DNA from: Methanocorpusculum parvum | GTDB taxonomy: Archaea > Halobacteriota > Methanomicrobia > Methanomicrobiales > Methanocorpusculaceae | DNA: 64,000 bases | Direction: 5' to 3' | Assembly (NCBI GenBank): GCA_015063085.1 | Contig: SUTD01000001.1 | Location: 186,001-250,000 of the forward strand | Shown here: piece after piece, positions 39,087 through 47,598 of the stretch | How the letters are laid out: each line of letters opens with the position of its first letter | Numbering within the stretch: the first letter of the stretch is position 1 | The notes under the pieces: generated by a model | What the model saw: the letters and a program-made list of their open reading frames with translations, nothing else | The model's database searches: none | What the model was told of the DNA's origin: nothing | Position numbers and translations under genes: made by a program

Positions 39087-40028
39087 TTAAATTGCCTTCC
39101 AGAGGAACTTTTCCGAGTGCAGCCCCTTCTTTTTCTGTCCGGCCGGGATTGCCTCTAAATCATCAACAATCGATCTCAGGCGGGAACTTGCCCCGTCTGC
39201 TTCGTTAACCAGCCAGGCTTCTGCAGTAAGCGGTACAACATCTCCGTAAATTCCATGGTGGGACTGGATGATATGGCGAATCTGTAAAAGCTGGGAATCG
39301 GTCAACAGAGACTTGTACTCATCGATGAACATAATACCCATTGTGATGTGCTCAATTAAATTGTAGGTATCATTGGGCACATAGTTCTGACCAACCTTGT
39401 CAAAGCAGAAGATTTTCCCGATATCGTGAAGAACACAGCCGGCGATGACCATATCACGGTTAATCTTCGTCCGCGGCATAGTCTCCATAATGGCAAGAGC
39501 GATACGAACCGTTTCAAGCGTGTGCTCGCATAATCCTCCCACATATTCGTGGTGGCGGCGAATGGCTGCCGGGCATTCATAGAACCGGCTGTCAAGACAG
39601 CAGGCAACAAAAATTCTCAGGTTCTGGTTCTGGATGGATGCGACAATCTTCTGCAGCTCAGATGCATTCTCCTCAATCTTTGCCGGAGTGTAGATGTAGA
39701 GCATATCCTCTCCTGCAGAAAGTAAAACCGCTCCATCCAGAATTGCAGACAGAGACTCCGGGTTTTCGGACTCCAAAAGCAGACTTCCGCCCTGCGGTAC
39801 CGTACCGGTTCCAATAATGCGGTACACCTGACCGGTTTTAATCGAGCGGGCGGCAGCAGCAGCTGCTTCTCCGTAGAACTTTGCCTCAATGACGCCGGTT
39901 CTGTCAGTAACAGTCATGTGGAGATACTGTTCTCCGCGTTTTGCCCGAAGGTCACAGCGCTTTACGGCAAAAAGAGAGTCAACTGCGGTACCATTGGTAA
40001 TATCTTTTACATAGACGGTTTTTTCCAT
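39087..40028 (-). CDS. YhaM-like OB-fold/HD-domain nuclease
   Basis: The 313-residue protein has an N-terminal OB-fold (about 1-85) and an HD domain: HHEYVGGLCEHT (159-170), the metal pair in LHDIGKI (201-202), and later EHITMG and SHHG histidines. This is the layout of YhaM-type 3'-5' exoribonucleases, known mainly in Firmicutes. It is the last gene of a tight operon, four bases after the BrxD-like ATPase. Substrate (RNA, DNA or nucleotide) is inferred only from the family. Confidence 0.82.
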   Translation of the reverse strand: MEKTVYVKDITNGTAVDSLFAVKRCDLRAKRGEQYLHMTVTDRTGVIEAKFYGEAAAAAARSIKTGQVYRIIGTGTVPQGGSLLLESENPESLSAILDGAVLLSAGEDMLYIYTPAKIEENASELQKIVASIQNQNLRIFVACCLDSRFYECPAAIRRHHEYVGGLCEHTLETVRIALAIMETMPRTKINRDMVIAGCVLHDIGKIFCFDKVGQNYVPNDTYNLIEHITMGIMFIDEYKSLLTDSQLLQIRHIIQSHHGIYGDVVPLTAEAWLVNEADGASSRLRSIVDDLEAIPAGQKKKGLHSEKFLWKAI

Positions 40029-40032
40029 AAAA

Positions 40033-41325
40033 TCACCAGGAAACTTCCATAACTGCCTTTTCCTCAGCCTTTAACGGAGCATCCCCGTTTCCGGGAGTGA
40101 AGGCATACTTCTCCATTGGAGAATAGTTCTCATACAATGCACATTTATCTAACACATCCACAAACTCGCGGAGGAACAGACGGGGAACAACATCCACGCG
40201 TCCGCCGAATCTGCCGGTTACTTTAGTAATCATTGCCCGGATAAAGGCAGGAGAAATGCGGGCAGAATCGACTTCCCCGAATCCCTCGGTGTAGATGTCA
40301 ATTACTTTGTACGCTGCCTTCTCCAGCTTTTCGCTGTCGAACTTTGCAAGCACAATCTGCGTCTGCAGAGGATTTGCAAATCCGTCTTCTGCAATGATTC
40401 CCAGTCTGTCATAGAGCGGCGGAAGCGAGCGGATTCCTTTTGCACTCTCGAAGAATGCCGGCGTTCCGGCAAAGAGGAGGAAGCATCCGGGAATCTCGTT
40501 TTTATCCGTCATGTCCACAAGCTGACGGAGATTAATGTAGCCTTTTTCTCTTTGCGGACGCGAAAATGCCTGTGCAGTTTCTGCTTCGTCGAAGCTTACA
40601 AAGAGCCCGGCAAATCCAGCCTGCCGGATTAAGTAGACGATTCCTTTTAAAAACAGCAGGGCGTCAGTCTCGGATACCAGGCCTTTCACCCCTGCCTGGG
40701 ACTTGAAACTCCGATTCGCAACCGTGCTGTCTCCTGAGATCCATCCGACAGCCGCCTGTGCTGTTGCAAAATCCCCGCGGTTGTTTGCCGCATAATAGGT
40801 TCGAACAGCAGCAGCCAGGCCGGAACTCACGCCTGCCACCCGTTCAAGAGATGCCTCAATCTCTTTTTCGGTGAGTTCAGCAAGGCGCTCGTCATTTTCA
40901 TCGATTCCTGTTTCAATCAGCCGGTCTTCGATGCCGTAAATCCAGGTGTCGATGATACTCTTTAACGCGTGGTCTTCGGTCCGGGTACAAAGGCCTGCAC
41001 AGATTTTCGTGTAGAGAGCAGTCAGTTTGTGAAGCGGAGTGTCCGGGGAAATAACCACATGAGACACCGCAAACTTCTGCGAGAAGGCAATCTCTGCAGC
41101 ACGGGCTATCAGAAATGTCTTTCCCGAACCGTAATCCCCGCGGACAAACTTGCAGTCAGAATGTCCGGATGCACAGAAGGAAAGCTGTGCGGAGAGGACG
41201 TTTTCCTCAGCCTCAAGACCGACAGCAAGGCGGGATAATCCGGCGTTTGGAACCGTTCCGCGGCGAAGAGCCGTGATTACCGCAACGCTTTCATTGCGCA
41301 GCTCATCTGCGGCCAATGTAGCCAT
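40033..41325 (-). CDS. BrxD/DUF2791-like P-loop ATPase
   Basis: From ATG 41325, with GAGGAGAA eight bases upstream, the protein is 430 residues. It has a Walker A motif GDYGSGKT (63-70) and a Walker B strand ending SFDE (244-247), and GxxGxGKTFL context typical of the BREX BrxC/BrxD and DUF2791 ATPase family. BrxD proteins belong to phage-defence and DNA-handling loci and often accompany helicases. No BREX partner genes (PglX, PglZ, BrxL) lie nearby. Its start lies inside the upstream TPR gene (23-base overlap), so the two are translationally coupled. Confidence 0.8.
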   Translation of the reverse strand: MATLAADELRNESVAVITALRRGTVPNAGLSRLAVGLEAEENVLSAQLSFCASGHSDCKFVRGDYGSGKTFLIARAAEIAFSQKFAVSHVVISPDTPLHKLTALYTKICAGLCTRTEDHALKSIIDTWIYGIEDRLIETGIDENDERLAELTEKEIEASLERVAGVSSGLAAAVRTYYAANNRGDFATAQAAVGWISGDSTVANRSFKSQAGVKGLVSETDALLFLKGIVYLIRQAGFAGLFVSFDEAETAQAFSRPQREKGYINLRQLVDMTDKNEIPGCFLLFAGTPAFFESAKGIRSLPPLYDRLGIIAEDGFANPLQTQIVLAKFDSEKLEKAAYKVIDIYTEGFGEVDSARISPAFIRAMITKVTGRFGGRVDVVPRLFLREFVDVLDKCALYENYSPMEKYAFTPGNGDAPLKAEEKAVMEVSW

Positions 41326-43141
41326 ACACTTCTCCTCTCTCGCCGACACCGCGCTTCTCAATCAGCGTGACGCCGTACTCTGCGGTTTTTGCAAGCAGGC
41401 TGTTGACAATGCCTGTCACCCGGCGGGTGTCTAAAACGCTTCGCAGATCCATCTCTGTTGCTTCCCGGTGTTCGCGAAGGAAGGAAAGCAGTTTTTTCTC
41501 GCGGTCATCCAGATTCGGGAGAAGATCCTCTTCTGCTTCCGGCAGTCCCTCTTCCGGCTCGGCTGCTGCTTCTGCCGCTTTTTCCAGAAGAATCGGGCGT
41601 TCAGCGATTGCCCGTCCTTTTACCCGCGAGAGGATATCCGTGAAATCCTGAAGGCTGATGGTCTCCGGATAACAGGGAAGCACATCAATTCCTGCCAAGC
41701 AGAACCATTTGCAGTCCTCAAGGTATCCGCACTCGAGGGCATCAACTGCCGCATAGAGGTATACTGCAGAAAGCATCTCGCGGCCTTTGGAGGTTAAACG
41801 CTCGGAAACGGCAGCCAGGCTTTTCTGGACAAGAGACCGGGACTTATCAAGCTGGTAGAGTGCGGCGTCCCCGTTGAGAATCGCATCGGCTGCGTGTTCG
41901 AGATCTGAGATTGAGTCGGCGTTTGTTAAGATGTAGCGGATAACCGTGTCCGCCTCGCGCAGCGAACCGGAACGCTTCAGATATCCTGCATAGGCAAGAC
42001 CGCCGTTTAAGAAATCAGCACGATAGGCACGGTAGAACCAGTCTTTTGCCTGACTGGATGCTCCGGCATTTTCGTACGCTTCACCGATTTTTGCAAGACA
42101 GACCGCGTGCGGATAGACAGAGAGGATAACGCTGATGACGCCTGCAACCTCTTCTTTGGAGCGAACCGCAGAAAGGAAGGAGGAGTAACGGTCGATAACA
42201 AGTTCTGCAGTGTCCCAGTCAGCATCGCGCTCCATCAGGGAGGCAATTAAACTGCGGTAGATAGAAGACGCACGTTCTCCGTCCTCCTTTTTCGCGGCAA
42301 GCTCTGCTGCGAGCAGGTGATAGACCGCATCCGCATCAGGGCTTAACAGATGCGAGAGTTCGAACTCAGCGGCGTCATAGTTTTCGCGATACGTTTCCAG
42401 CAGAACAAAGGAGAAGCGAATCGCAGAAACATTTTCATCAGCGATGTCTGCTTCTTCAAAGCTGTCAAGGGCGGAGCGGTATGCTTTTTCTGCAGCATCT
42501 TTGTCGATTGCAGAGAGCGCTTCGAGATCGAGACGAAGGTATGCCGTGTTTTTGGTCTCCGTCCATCCGCGAAGAGCGGCATTCAGTGCCTTCTGATACT
42601 CACCGGATGCAAGAAGCGCCTCGATGTACTCGACACTGAAGGCATCCTCGCCAAAGGTTCTCCGGTGAAGGGCAGTTGCCTCTTCTGCTTCGCCGACGGC
42701 TGTTAACGTTTTAATCAGCGTCTGCACATCCTCATCGCTTCCGTTGTTTCTGACAAGGGTTCGAAGAGCAGGAATTGCTCCCCGTAAATCTCCGCGGCGG
42801 GCAACAAGGATGGAATACTGTCTGACTGCTGCGAGGTTTTCCGGATCGAGCGTTAAGGCTTTTGCGTATTCTGCCTCGGCACCCTCGTCTCCGCAGGCGA
42901 AAAGCACGTCTCCTAAATAGCTGTGGACGTAGGATGAACCCGGCATGATGCGGATTAACGAACGCAGAAGAGATTCTGCGATATCATATTTCTCCGTTGC
43001 CGCATAGCTTCTTGCGGCAAGAAGCATTAATGCCGGATCTGTGGTGCCGGAGGCAAAGCTGATGACTTCATCATATTTTCCGGCATTGAAGAGTTCCAGG
43101 GAGGCTGAAAGTGCCGCCGGATCTGGTACGGTATTTTCCAT
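41303..43141 (-). CDS. TPR-repeat protein with C-terminal winged-helix domain
   Basis: The 612-residue protein consists largely of alpha-solenoid TPR-like repeats (for example LGDVLFACGDEGAEAEYAKALTLDPEN). After an acidic, alanine-rich linker (about 520-545) there is a C-terminal helical domain starting DDREKKLLSFLREHREATEMDL, which looks like a winged helix that would read DNA or protein. It overlaps the ATPase gene by 23 bases. Partner-binding scaffold with DNA-binding tail is the likely role, by inference. Confidence 0.78.
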   Translation of the reverse strand: MENTVPDPAALSASLELFNAGKYDEVISFASGTTDPALMLLAARSYAATEKYDIAESLLRSLIRIMPGSSYVHSYLGDVLFACGDEGAEAEYAKALTLDPENLAAVRQYSILVARRGDLRGAIPALRTLVRNNGSDEDVQTLIKTLTAVGEAEEATALHRRTFGEDAFSVEYIEALLASGEYQKALNAALRGWTETKNTAYLRLDLEALSAIDKDAAEKAYRSALDSFEEADIADENVSAIRFSFVLLETYRENYDAAEFELSHLLSPDADAVYHLLAAELAAKKEDGERASSIYRSLIASLMERDADWDTAELVIDRYSSFLSAVRSKEEVAGVISVILSVYPHAVCLAKIGEAYENAGASSQAKDWFYRAYRADFLNGGLAYAGYLKRSGSLREADTVIRYILTNADSISDLEHAADAILNGDAALYQLDKSRSLVQKSLAAVSERLTSKGREMLSAVYLYAAVDALECGYLEDCKWFCLAGIDVLPCYPETISLQDFTDILSRVKGRAIAERPILLEKAAEAAAEPEEGLPEAEEDLLPNLDDREKKLLSFLREHREATEMDLRSVLDTRRVTGIVNSLLAKTAEYGVTLIEKRGVGERGEVYGYIGRR

Positions 43142-43144
43142 AAA

Positions 43145-43657
43145 TTACCGGATGACAGAGATGATTGCGTCTGCAAATGCTTTTGCGTCGAACGGAGATT
43201 TTGCGGTAATGATGCTGCCGTCAATTACAACATTGTCAGAGACAATCTCTGCATTGTCGAGCTGTAAGACACGAAGACATGCCGGAGTCTGTAAGGTGGT
43301 TGCCTTTTTGCCGTTTAAGAGGCCGGCTTCTCCTAAGATGACCGGGGCTAAGCAGATTGCAGCGGCAAATTTACCGTTGTTTCCGATTTTGTTGGTGATG
43401 TCAATGAGCTCTTCGCATCTCCAGAGCTGGTCCTGACAACCGATTCCGCCGCCGATGACGATGCCGTCGAACTCGTCAGCGTTGACGTCAGAGAATGCGA
43501 GGTCGGATTCAACAATCTCGCCGTGCATACCGTAACAGGTTCCTTTAACCGGGGCTGCAGTGACGCATTCTGCACCTGCTTCTTCGAGGGCTTTTTTCGG
43601 GACGGTGTATGCTTCGTCCATGAATCTGTCTGATGCTATTGCGAAGAGAACTTTCAT
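43145..43657 (-). CDS. DJ-1/PfpI-family protein
   Basis: The 170-residue protein has the flavodoxin-like DJ-1 fold with the nucleophile in AAAICLAPVI (Cys102) at the sharp turn, an acidic partner Glu15 and IGGGIG. DJ-1 family members act as chaperones, deglycases or proteases, and the reaction here is not known. Its stop is three bases before the TPR gene, so it heads or joins the TPR-ATPase-HD operon. hemD lies 61 bases upstream on the same strand. Confidence 0.88.
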   Translation of the reverse strand: MKVLFAIASDRFMDEAYTVPKKALEEAGAECVTAAPVKGTCYGMHGEIVESDLAFSDVNADEFDGIVIGGGIGCQDQLWRCEELIDITNKIGNNGKFAAAICLAPVILGEAGLLNGKKATTLQTPACLRVLQLDNAEIVSDNVVIDGSIITAKSPFDAKAFADAIISVIR

Positions 43658-44674: not shown

Positions 44675-45706
44675 TTATCCAATTTTGTACCGCAGAAGAG
44701 AAGCGATTCCTCCTAGTCCTTCGAGACGCTTTCCCGGCTCGAATTCAGTTGATAAGACCACAACAGCCGCACCTAAGCGTTCTGCATCCTCAATCGTACG
44801 GGAAACCGTGCCGTCCCGTAAGCGGGAGTCGGTGATAATTACCGTCTCTGCAGCACCAAAATCAACGGAATCGCGCACCTCTGCGGCACCATAGGCGACA
44901 GCCCCGTTTTTGCTGATGCGGACAAAGAGCTCATCCATCACCTCGACCTCTCTGGCGAGCTGAACATCCTCTGCAACGCGTGAGAGAACACCGTTTCCGA
45001 TTGCCTCCTGAACTGCTCCGTATCCGGAACGGCGGGTATCTGCCGGAAGCATGCGGCCGCCGAGATCGGGTGCTTTTGACTTGGCATACGAGATGAAATC
45101 CTCCTTGACAAACCCGGGGCCTGCAACAACAACAGGACCGGTTACCGGACCGAGTTTTTCAAGCGCTGCTGCAAACAATGCCTGGCGGGAGTCAAGGCCT
45201 GCGGTCTTTCCGCTGCCGATTGTTAAGGTGACAATTCTCTCCGGACCATACTGTCTGATGCGGTAGAGTTCGATTTCTCCGTCTTCTACTGCCGCGATGT
45301 GGATAACCCCATGGACTGTCTGAGACACTGCACGTTCCAAGCGGTCGAGGTCAACCTGCCGCCAGCGTCTGACCACACTGATTTCATAGCCGGTTTCAAT
45401 GTTTAAGGTGTGATGCTGACCAAGGTCCGGTCCGAAGGTAATCGTTCCAAACACACGAAGTCTGTTTGCATCCGGTGAGAACTCAACCTTTTCTGCTTTG
45501 ACGCCCATCCTGACCGGACGTTTTTCCAGCTTCTCAGCCCGAATCTTATCGTTTGGCCCGTCCACTGTTCGAAGCGTTACTGCATACACCGTATCACCCT
45601 CACCGATGAGATGCGAGAGATGCCAAAGGTCATCAAGAGAATCCGGAAGGAGTTTGTACTCGCCAAACCCGTCCCGCTTCAAAGGCTCTTCAAGCACTGC
45701 CCTCAT
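44675..45706 (-). CDS. pelA: mRNA surveillance protein Pelota (Dom34)
   Basis: The 343-residue protein has the three Pelota domains: the N-terminal Sm-like domain with LPDSLDDLWHLSHLI, a central domain with VVAGPGFVKEDF, and a C-terminal eRF1-like domain ending in the FEPGKRLEGLGGIASLLRY tail. It lacks the GGQ motif of release factors, as expected. Pelota enters the empty A site of stalled ribosomes and, with ABCE1, splits them. The gene shares an ATGA overlap with rqcH, and ABCE1 lies in the same locus. Confidence 0.95.
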   Translation of the reverse strand: MRAVLEEPLKRDGFGEYKLLPDSLDDLWHLSHLIGEGDTVYAVTLRTVDGPNDKIRAEKLEKRPVRMGVKAEKVEFSPDANRLRVFGTITFGPDLGQHHTLNIETGYEISVVRRWRQVDLDRLERAVSQTVHGVIHIAAVEDGEIELYRIRQYGPERIVTLTIGSGKTAGLDSRQALFAAALEKLGPVTGPVVVAGPGFVKEDFISYAKSKAPDLGGRMLPADTRRSGYGAVQEAIGNGVLSRVAEDVQLAREVEVMDELFVRISKNGAVAYGAAEVRDSVDFGAAETVIITDSRLRDGTVSRTIEDAERLGAAVVVLSTEFEPGKRLEGLGGIASLLRYKIG

Positions 45707-47598
45707 ACGATATCAGAGCCTCCGGGAGGTACAAATGCCGCAACCGCTTCGGTATTCAAGATCGCTTTGAAGGCTTTCTGCTCGCTTTCCGGGATTGCTT
45801 CCTTGATTTTTCGAAGAACCTTCTTTGCGATATCGTTTCCTTCAAAGGTTCCCGGACGAAGCCGGACAGAAACTTTGCACTTCGGCTCAACGGCCTCAGG
45901 AGTTCCGCCGATTACCGCTAAAACCGGCTCGGTCATGATACCGATTGAAACCTCAAGCGGCACGTCCTTGTGGATTTTGCGCTCGCCCCGGATAATGAAG
46001 GAACCGTGTGCCACATACTCTCCGGACTCCGGAGTTTTGCTGACCTGAGACGGGGCTGCTTCGATGACATCTCCCGATGCCCCTCCTCCGCTCCACATTC
46101 GGGAATACGAGGCGGCAAACTGCACAGCTTCGTTCATCTTTTCGGTCTTGCCTTTTACGATGATGACGGATGCGCCAAACACATCCGCGTGGAGGAAGGT
46201 GTCTTTTCCTTCCATGTACTTCTTGACCAGCTCCTCGTTCTGGTCTGCGTTTCTGCCGCCAATGACAACCGTTCCATCCGAGGTCTCCATCCAGCGGAAC
46301 CGGTGGTACCACTTCGCCTTCATTTTACCTGCGGTGACAGTCTTTTTCTTCTCGGCATGCTTAATGCCGGCTTCCATAGCACGGTAGGCTCCGGCCTTTT
46401 TAGCGCGGAACTTCTTTGCGGCCTGGCTGTAGCGTCCGGCATTCGCTTCCAGACTTTCGTGGACAAAGATGGTGACCTTGTGCTTCTCGCCAAGGTCTAA
46501 GAGGACAGATGCCTTTTCCGGGTTGATGGAGACAACGCGTTTTGCAGCCGGCAGGTCGCTTCCTTTCAAAACTTTTCCGATGTCCTGCCAGGACATCTTC
46601 TTACTTGCCGCAGACAGCACATCGATGGTTTCCTGAACTTCACCGTAGTGCCCGTAGATGATTTCTGCAATCTCGTTTGCTTCGGCAATTTTTTTGTCGA
46701 AGGAGACGATTGCTGCTTCCTGCTGTTTTCTAATGCGCTCTTCTTTGGAGAGGCGCTTTTCCTTTTCCACTTCCTGGACAGGTTCAGGCTTTGGATAGAA
46801 GGCATCAAGAGCTTTCCAGAAAGCATCGAAGTGTGCCAAAGGCTCGCGGCCGAGGGCAGGGCGCGGGAAGGCTCCCTTGGCATCAATTACCGGCTCGGGA
46901 GTTTTCAGGAACTCAATCCATGCGCACATTGCATCGTAGACCGGGCGAAGCTGGGCATCTTCGGCGTAGGCAACCGGCATGGATTTCGAGACACCGGCCT
47001 TTGCACAAATCTCTTCCGCATTAACGCCTCCAAGCATAAAGGTCGTTGCAAGAGCGCGGACAACATCTGCATCGTTTGTGCGAATTTTTTCGCAGAACTC
47101 TTCGTATGAGAGTTCCTCCGGGCTCTTCGCTGTTCCGTCATAGAGAGTGCCTGCAACGATATCTCGTTCACGGAAGCGCTTCTGGGATAAAGCGTTGATA
47201 ATTTTGAAGTCCTTGTCCGTGAAGATCAGGTTTCCTTCATCGAACAGCTCAAAGATAAGCTTATACTCATTCGGGCCTTTTCCAATCGAGAAGATAATGA
47301 CACGCTCGATTCCTTTCTGCTCGATTGCAAGGACTTTTCCTCCTTCGATGTATTTTCGAAGGTACATCGAAAAGCCTGACGGATTCTTCGGGGCAGGCGG
47401 CAGTTCGGATGTCAGATGGGCGCGAACGCCTTTTTCTGCGAAGAAAAGATGACGCGCCTTCTCTTCACCGTTTAACCGAAAACCGAAAGACGCAGTATCG
47501 TATTGGTATATTTTTCCTATCCAGAGCGGAAGGAGTGCGGAAAGTTCAGTAACTTCCGCACGGACATCCGTCCCGCTCATGCCCTGTAATGTCGCCAT
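45703..47598 (-). CDS. rqcH: RqcH/NEMF-family ribosome quality-control protein
   Basis: The 631-residue protein has an NFACT-N domain (MSGTDVRAEVTELSALL, then the FSMYLRKYIEGG region), a central helix-hairpin-helix, a coiled coil with EKEKRLSKEERIRKQQEAA spanning about 300-325, and the NFACT-R domain (RFRWMETSDGTVVIGGRNADQ, about 430-450). The family binds the peptidyl-tRNA left in the large subunit after ribosome splitting and adds alanine tails, in bacteria and archaea. Pelota is coupled downstream. Confidence 0.92.
   Translation of the reverse strand: MATLQGMSGTDVRAEVTELSALLPLWIGKIYQYDTASFGFRLNGEEKARHLFFAEKGVRAHLTSELPPAPKNPSGFSMYLRKYIEGGKVLAIEQKGIERVIIFSIGKGPNEYKLIFELFDEGNLIFTDKDFKIINALSQKRFRERDIVAGTLYDGTAKSPEELSYEEFCEKIRTNDADVVRALATTFMLGGVNAEEICAKAGVSKSMPVAYAEDAQLRPVYDAMCAWIEFLKTPEPVIDAKGAFPRPALGREPLAHFDAFWKALDAFYPKPEPVQEVEKEKRLSKEERIRKQQEAAIVSFDKKIAEANEIAEIIYGHYGEVQETIDVLSAASKKMSWQDIGKVLKGSDLPAAKRVVSINPEKASVLLDLGEKHKVTIFVHESLEANAGRYSQAAKKFRAKKAGAYRAMEAGIKHAEKKKTVTAGKMKAKWYHRFRWMETSDGTVVIGGRNADQNEELVKKYMEGKDTFLHADVFGASVIIVKGKTEKMNEAVQFAASYSRMWSGGGASGDVIEAAPSQVSKTPESGEYVAHGSFIIRGERKIHKDVPLEVSIGIMTEPVLAVIGGTPEAVEPKCKVSVRLRPGTFEGNDIAKKVLRKIKEAIPESEQKAFKAILNTEAVAAFVPPGGSDIV

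What the first reader, a model, noticed from the sequence alone, without database searches (positions are those of the whole stretch)
39087..43657. Undescribed operon: DJ-1 protein, TPR/winged-helix protein, BrxD-like ATPase and OB/HD nuclease
Four genes on one strand are separated by three bases, overlap by 23 bases, and are separated by seven or fewer. The ATPase belongs to the BrxC/BrxD (DUF2791) class known from BREX phage-defence loci, but no other BREX gene is present. The TPR protein ends in a winged helix and the last gene encodes a YhaM-type nuclease, rare in archaea. ATP-driven sensing linked to a nuclease would fit defence or DNA/RNA repair; this is inference.
Basis: partly seen in the sequence, partly recalled or inferred. 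Interest (0 to 1): 0.75.

Follow-up and report, generated by a model that had tools for sequence, protein, structure and literature searches.

The report
Scattered BrxD–helicase module in methanogens
An ATPase known from bacterial anti-virus systems is a fixed core gene in three families of methane-producing archaea, always next to a new TPR/winged-helix protein and matched one-to-one with its usual helicase, which is encoded far away on the chromosome; this looks like a defence machine that became (or came from) everyday DNA machinery.

Summary
The four genes, gaps and overlap are as described, and the ATPase is a true BrxD (PF10923 E=4e-123; NCBIfam BREX_BrxD above cut-off). But the four genes are not the functional unit. 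Across the order only TPR-winged-helix + BrxD is invariant: adjacent in every core locus examined in three families (Methanocorpusculaceae, Methanofollis, Methanoregulaceae), single-copy, vertically inherited, often among housekeeping genes. The OB/HD gene and DJ-1 are neighbours: OB/HD is missing from a family that has the pair and present in two that lack it. Decisive addition: a BrxHI-type helicase, BrxD's adjacent partner in BREX-2/6 and Shango, is encoded 64-1,193 kb away on closed chromosomes and matches core BrxD one-to-one (62 genomes both, 46 neither, 0 discordant). BrxD, helicase and TPR also co-vary in rate beyond the species signal; control genes, OB/HD and DJ-1 do so much less or not at all. 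PglZ is absent. This is a dispersed BrxD-BrxHI-TPR/wHTH module outside BREX and Shango. Most likely an ORC/Cdc6-like loader that places a helicase on DNA, for chromosome maintenance rather than patchy defence; the role is inferred. New variant of a known kind.

The parts
41303..43141 (-). TPR superhelix protein (612 aa) with C-terminal winged helix; obligatory partner of BrxD
   Evidence: TPR_19 1.2e-11; AlphaFold pLDDT 89.4; adjacent to BrxD in every core locus examined; full-length homologues only in families f1, f4, f6 among 394 genomes of the phylum
41303..41506 (-). C-terminal winged-helix domain of the TPR protein (residues 546-612)
   Evidence: order of helices and strands in the model; most conserved part of the protein; no Pfam/PDB sequence match
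40033..41325 (-). BrxD AAA+ ATPase (430 aa from ATG), overlaps the TPR gene by 23 nt
   Evidence: PF10923 4.4e-123; NF033438 388.4 bits, cut-off 350; PADLOC BrxD 395 vs SngB 148 bits
41116..41139 (-). Walker A of BrxD (GDYGSGKT)
   Evidence: G63, Y65, G66, G68, K69, T70 invariant in 21 sequences
40585..40590 (-). Walker B acidic pair of BrxD (D246 E247)
   Evidence: invariant in 21 sequences
39087..40028 (-). OB-fold + HD-domain protein (YhaM-like architecture); conserved neighbour, not a required component
   Evidence: PF01966, PF01336; phyletic pattern discordant with BrxD (vs 9); partial r with BrxD 0.24
43145..43657 (-). DJ-1/PfpI family protein; syntenic neighbour, not a required component
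   Evidence: PF01965 1.9e-35; partial r with BrxD -0.12; 5.5-6 kb from the pair in f4 and not found near it in most f6 loci

Best explanation
The window holds two of three parts of a dispersed core-genome machine: a TPR/winged-helix adaptor and a BrxD AAA+ ATPase in one operon, working with a BrxHI-type SF2 helicase encoded elsewhere (G000:C19 about 41.7-43.8 kb; BrxD at 226.1 kb on the same contig). Proposed mechanism: the TPR superhelix organises the complex and its winged helix contacts nucleic acid; BrxD, an ORC/Cdc6-like AAA+ ATPase, uses ATP to load or activate the helicase on DNA. Shown here: gene identity, intact ATPase and helicase motifs, one-to-one co-occurrence, rate co-variation, vertical inheritance, absence of PglZ. 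Inferred: physical complex, DNA as the substrate, and the role, which is more likely routine genome maintenance (conflicts, stalled structures) than dedicated antivirus defence. OB/HD and DJ-1 are neighbours.
For: BrxD identity. TPR-BrxD adjacent in every core locus examined. BrxHI profile finds a full-length helicase in 28/28 f1/f4/f6 genomes and none in f2/f3/f5 apart from a Shango copy in G040 and the ~360-bit longer protein all genomes have; helicase matches PADLOC BrxHI at 524-532 bits vs SngC 365-405. Order-wide: 62 both, 46 neither, 0 discordant among 108 genomes at least 90% complete. Rate co-variation given RqcH: BrxD-helicase 0.754, TPR-helicase 0.726, BrxD-TPR 0.405, 0/2000 within-family permutations; controls hisD/pyrG/guaA/argD with BrxD -0.14 to 0.61 where BrxD-helicase is 0.82-0.91. 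BrxD and helicase trees agree: core clade nearest the BREX-2/6 group, Shango outside. Every other BrxD context read has an adjacent helicase. Purifying selection. Flanks include hisD, pyrG, guaA, argD.
Against: No direct evidence of a complex or activity. The phyletic pattern reflects few independent events (minimum 3 changes on the RqcH tree), so the 62/46 table overstates independence. The helicase evolves faster than RqcH (77.8% vs 94.6% aa identity between close relatives), which could fit an arms race. BrxD's only experimentally tested relatives are in defence. BrxD fold matches to ORC/Cdc6 are weak (TM about 0.37-0.42, E about 0.01-0.04).
Confidence: 0.55

Rival explanations
1. The same three-part module is a fixed, constitutive antiviral system, a Shango/BREX-2-like helicase defence that became part of the core genome.
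For: Closest characterised relatives are defence components: BREX-2 BrxD/BrxHI and Shango (PMC12839542, PMC10250203). Shango needs only TerB, ATPase and helicase genes, so a three-gene module could defend. The helicase is the fastest evolving part.
Against: No presence/absence variation inside three families in good genomes (62/62), vertical trees, housekeeping flanks, no linked nuclease or modification gene, low dN/dS. True Shango loci occur patchily in the same genomes as a separate clade.
Confidence: 0.27
2. Split MalT-like regulator: BrxD is a signalling ATPase, the TPR domain the sensor and the winged helix a promoter-binding domain.
For: ATPase + TPR + DNA-binding domain is the logic of MalT-type regulators (own knowledge). 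The winged helix is the best conserved part of the TPR protein.
Against: Does not explain the one-to-one helicase partner or the rate co-variation; BrxD is a dedicated helicase-associated family.
Confidence: 0.08
3. Four-gene operon: DJ-1, TPR-wHTH, BrxD and OB/HD nuclease form one defence or repair system.
For: Tight spacing in the window; DJ-1, TPR, BrxD, OB/HD keep that order in Methanocorpusculum and Methanocalculus-side genomes and, with a sensor kinase gene inserted, in f4.
Against: OB/HD absent from f6 (which has the pair) and present in f2 and f5 (which lack it); unrelated ATPase genes inserted between BrxD and OB/HD in some Methanocorpusculum; no rate co-variation.
Confidence: 0.05

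Closest known systems
BREX type 2 BrxD-BrxHI dyad (Pgl)
   Same: BrxD equivalog-level match; BrxHI-type helicase of full length; both trees put the archaeal clade nearest the BREX-2/6 group
   Different: No PglZ, dyad not adjacent, new TPR-wHTH partner, core gene in archaea; a 2026 survey found no archaeal type-2 BREX and describes BrxD as type-2 specific (PMC12839542)
Shango (SngA TerB, SngB ATPase, SngC helicase)
   Same: Three parts: an extra protein, a BrxD-family ATPase, a BrxHI-like helicase
   Different: No TerB protein, ATPase and helicase in other clades (25-29% identity), genes dispersed, not patchy; genuine Shango loci coexist in some of the same genomes
ORC/Cdc6 AAA+ helicase loaders
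   Same: BrxD is classed as ORC/Cdc6 AAA+ (PMC12839542); weak Foldseek hits to Cdc6/Orc1, ORC2 and OCCM
   Different: No winged helix in BrxD itself (it is in the TPR partner); partner is an SF2 helicase, not MCM
YhaM 3'-5' exoribonuclease (for the OB/HD neighbour)
   Same: OB-fold then HD domain
   Different: 85.8 bits against a cut-off of 460

Membership tests
BREX type 2 | PglZ present | tested here: not met
   PF08665 not found in G000 or in closed genomes G054 and G042
BREX type 2 | BrxD ATPase | tested here: met
   NF033438 388.4 bits, cut-off 350
BREX type 2 | BrxHI helicase, tightly linked to BrxD | tested here: not met
   BrxHI-type helicase present in the genome but not adjacent: 64-1,193 kb away on 12 closed or near-closed chromosomes
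BREX type 2 | BrxC, PglX, PglW | not tested
   Only PF10923 was searched genome-wide; G000 has a single match, the window's own. None seen in the loci read
Shango | TerB-domain protein next to the ATPase | tested here: not met
   Neighbour is TPR-wHTH, no TerB match; profile comparison with a TerB protein probability 2%
Shango | ATPase of the SngB clade | tested here: not met
   BrxD 395 vs SngB 148 bits; separate clades
Shango | Adjacent SngC helicase | tested here: not met
   No helicase next to the core pair
BrxD family (PF10923) | Sequence profile and intact Walker A/B | tested here: met
BrxHI-type helicase (distal gene) | Full-length BrxHI profile with SF2 motifs | tested here: met
   PADLOC BrxHI 524-532 bits over 2-698 of about 700; motif consensus in A5
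ORC/Cdc6-like helicase loader (works like) | ATP-dependent loading of a helicase on DNA | not testable with these tools
   Fold match only, weak
YhaM (OB/HD gene) | NCBIfam YhaM equivalog cut-off | tested here: not met
   85.8 vs 460 bits

The most novel reading that the evidence does not exclude
A BrxD-BrxHI ATPase-helicase pair, known only from mobile antiviral systems, serves as standard chromosome-maintenance machinery in three families of Methanomicrobiales together with a new TPR-winged-helix adaptor; either a defence machine was domesticated, or the core machine is close to the source from which BREX-2 and Shango took their motor.
Probability: 0.42. Interest if true: 0.78.

Novelty: new variant of a known kind. 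Interest (0 to 1): 0.6.

Why it matters
What BrxD and BrxHI do in BREX-2, or their relatives in Shango, is not known. Here they appear stripped of phosphatase, methyltransferase and TerB, conserved for a whole clade, and still strictly paired although their genes are far apart. That gives a minimal system in which the ATPase-helicase function can be studied alone, supports the loader hypothesis for BrxD, and is a candidate case of exchange between antiviral systems and core DNA machinery in archaea.

Tried and rejected
Four-gene operon as a unit: rejected by phyletic discordance of OB/HD and lack of rate co-variation. BREX or Shango membership: rejected. Homology of the TPR-wHTH protein to the genes upstream of BrxD in Shango or in a Deinococcus plasmid system: none found; of its winged helix to BrxHI: none. 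PDB and Pfam matches for the winged helix: none. PDB sequence match for BrxD: none. TPR fold search gives only generic TPR superhelices, including Ski3 of the SKI complex, which cannot be told apart from the rest. BrxD in phage genomes: none. First RqcH tree had two wrong-frame rows, redone. A first report call was incomplete.

Full report
OBSERVATION. The four ORFs, spacing and overlap are as stated. BrxD starts at the ATG at 41325, giving the 23-nt overlap. The ATPase matches PF10923 (4.4e-123), NCBIfam BREX_BrxD above its cut-off, and PADLOC BrxD far better than SngB. The TPR protein's terminal winged helix is supported by the AlphaFold model but is new by sequence.

IT IS A CORE GENE PAIR. 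PF10923 over 150 genomes of the order found a core-type BrxD in essentially all genomes of three families (codes f1, f4, f6), single-copy as a core gene, and not in f2, f3, f5. I fetched 53 regions around BrxD hits from these genomes. In all 41 core loci TPR directly precedes BrxD, usually with overlapping genes. Named records retrieved with the TPR profile are Methanocorpusculum, Methanorbis, a Methanocalculaceae MAG, Methanofollis, Methanoregula, Methanolinea and unclassified Methanomicrobiales; a phylum-wide search of 394 genomes finds full-length TPR-wHTH only in the three families. Conserved flanks in f4/f6 and part of f1 include histidinol dehydrogenase, CTP synthase, GMP synthase and an aminotransferase. 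In the BrxD tree the core clade is monophyletic and mostly follows the families, so it is inherited vertically.

OB/HD AND DJ-1 ARE NEIGHBOURS. OB/HD follows BrxD in f4 and in part of Methanocorpusculum; in other Methanocorpusculum other genes, such as a DUF4143 ATPase, are inserted, and in the second f1 genus it lies kilobases away. It is absent from f6 and present in f2 and f5. Neither OB/HD nor DJ-1 co-varies with BrxD beyond the species signal (partial r 0.24 and -0.12).

THE MISSING PARTNER. In every annotated bacterial BrxD locus read (BREX-2, BREX-6, a Deinococcus plasmid system, Shango) and in the other BrxD-like loci of the same archaeal phylum, BrxD is followed by or close to a BrxHI/SngC-type helicase; a 2026 survey calls BrxD-BrxHI a tightly linked dyad and suggests helicase loading (PMC12839542). 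The archaeal pair has none nearby. A profile of eight such helicases (A4) found a full-length one in all 28 f1/f4/f6 genomes tested; in f2/f3/f5 only the longer ~360-bit protein that all genomes have (Lhr-like by length and profile, inference), plus G040's Shango copy. In the window's genome it lies at C19:41.7-43.8 kb, BrxD at C19:226.1 kb. It matches PADLOC BrxHI at 524-532 bits. With a profile of the archaeal helicases (A5), among 108 genomes at least 90% complete 62 have both genes, 46 neither and none only one (the Fisher p of 1e-31 ignores shared ancestry). On 12 closed or near-closed chromosomes the two lie 64-1,193 kb apart. The RqcH species tree puts f2 with f1, and f4/f6 outside, so the pattern needs at least three changes, including joint loss in f2. 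The helicase tree mirrors the BrxD tree.

CO-EVOLUTION. Over 39 genomes, distances given RqcH correlate: BrxD-helicase 0.754, TPR-helicase 0.726, BrxD-TPR 0.405, 0 of 2000 within-family permutations as high. Control core genes (hisD, pyrG, guaA, argD), some of them physical neighbours of the pair, reach -0.14 to 0.61 with BrxD in the same subsets where BrxD-helicase reaches 0.82-0.91. pyrG is the least clean control (0.61 with BrxD).

MECHANISM. Walker A/B and helicase motifs are intact. The BrxD model is an AAA+ fold with weak similarity to HslU and ORC/Cdc6. Proposed: TPR-wHTH as scaffold and nucleic-acid contact, BrxD as ATP-driven loader, BrxHI-type helicase as motor. The complex, its substrate and its role are inferred. 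Absence of PglZ, fixation, vertical inheritance and low dN/dS (0.047 for BrxD, 0.076 for the helicase, with dS near saturation) favour maintenance over a mobile defence system, but a constitutive antiviral role remains open.

LIMITS. The window's genome is about 80% complete. The species tree is one gene. Co-occurrence reflects few independent events.

Noticed in passing
44675-47598 (-): RqcH (ribosome rescue, NF041120 622.7 bits) and pelota overlap by 4 nt, followed by a tRNA-Arg and a HemD-like gene: two ribosome-rescue factors apparently in one operon.
   Followed up: no
L039, L047, L071, L072, L074, L076, L077, L081, L082: Shango-like loci (TerB - SngB - SngC) occur patchily in the same archaeal order, sometimes in genomes that also carry the core BrxD.
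   Followed up: partly
L200-L202: In another family of the phylum an unidentified 258-aa protein precedes BrxD and a BrxHI-like helicase: a further BrxD-helicase context.
   Followed up: no
L078-L080: Loci with two BrxD-like ATPases in tandem plus a helicase and a conserved ~290-aa protein.
   Followed up: no
L209: Deinococcus psychrotolerans plasmid with a duplicated BrxD - helicase - HNH cassette and unidentified upstream genes.
   Followed up: no
L034, L036, L040: AAA_14/DUF4143 ATPase gene inserted between BrxD and OB/HD in some Methanocorpusculum.
   Followed up: no
L215, L217-L220 and others: A thioredoxin gene lies just upstream of the distal BrxHI-type helicase in 18 of 28 loci, overlapping by 4 nt in several Methanocorpusculum.
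   Followed up: no
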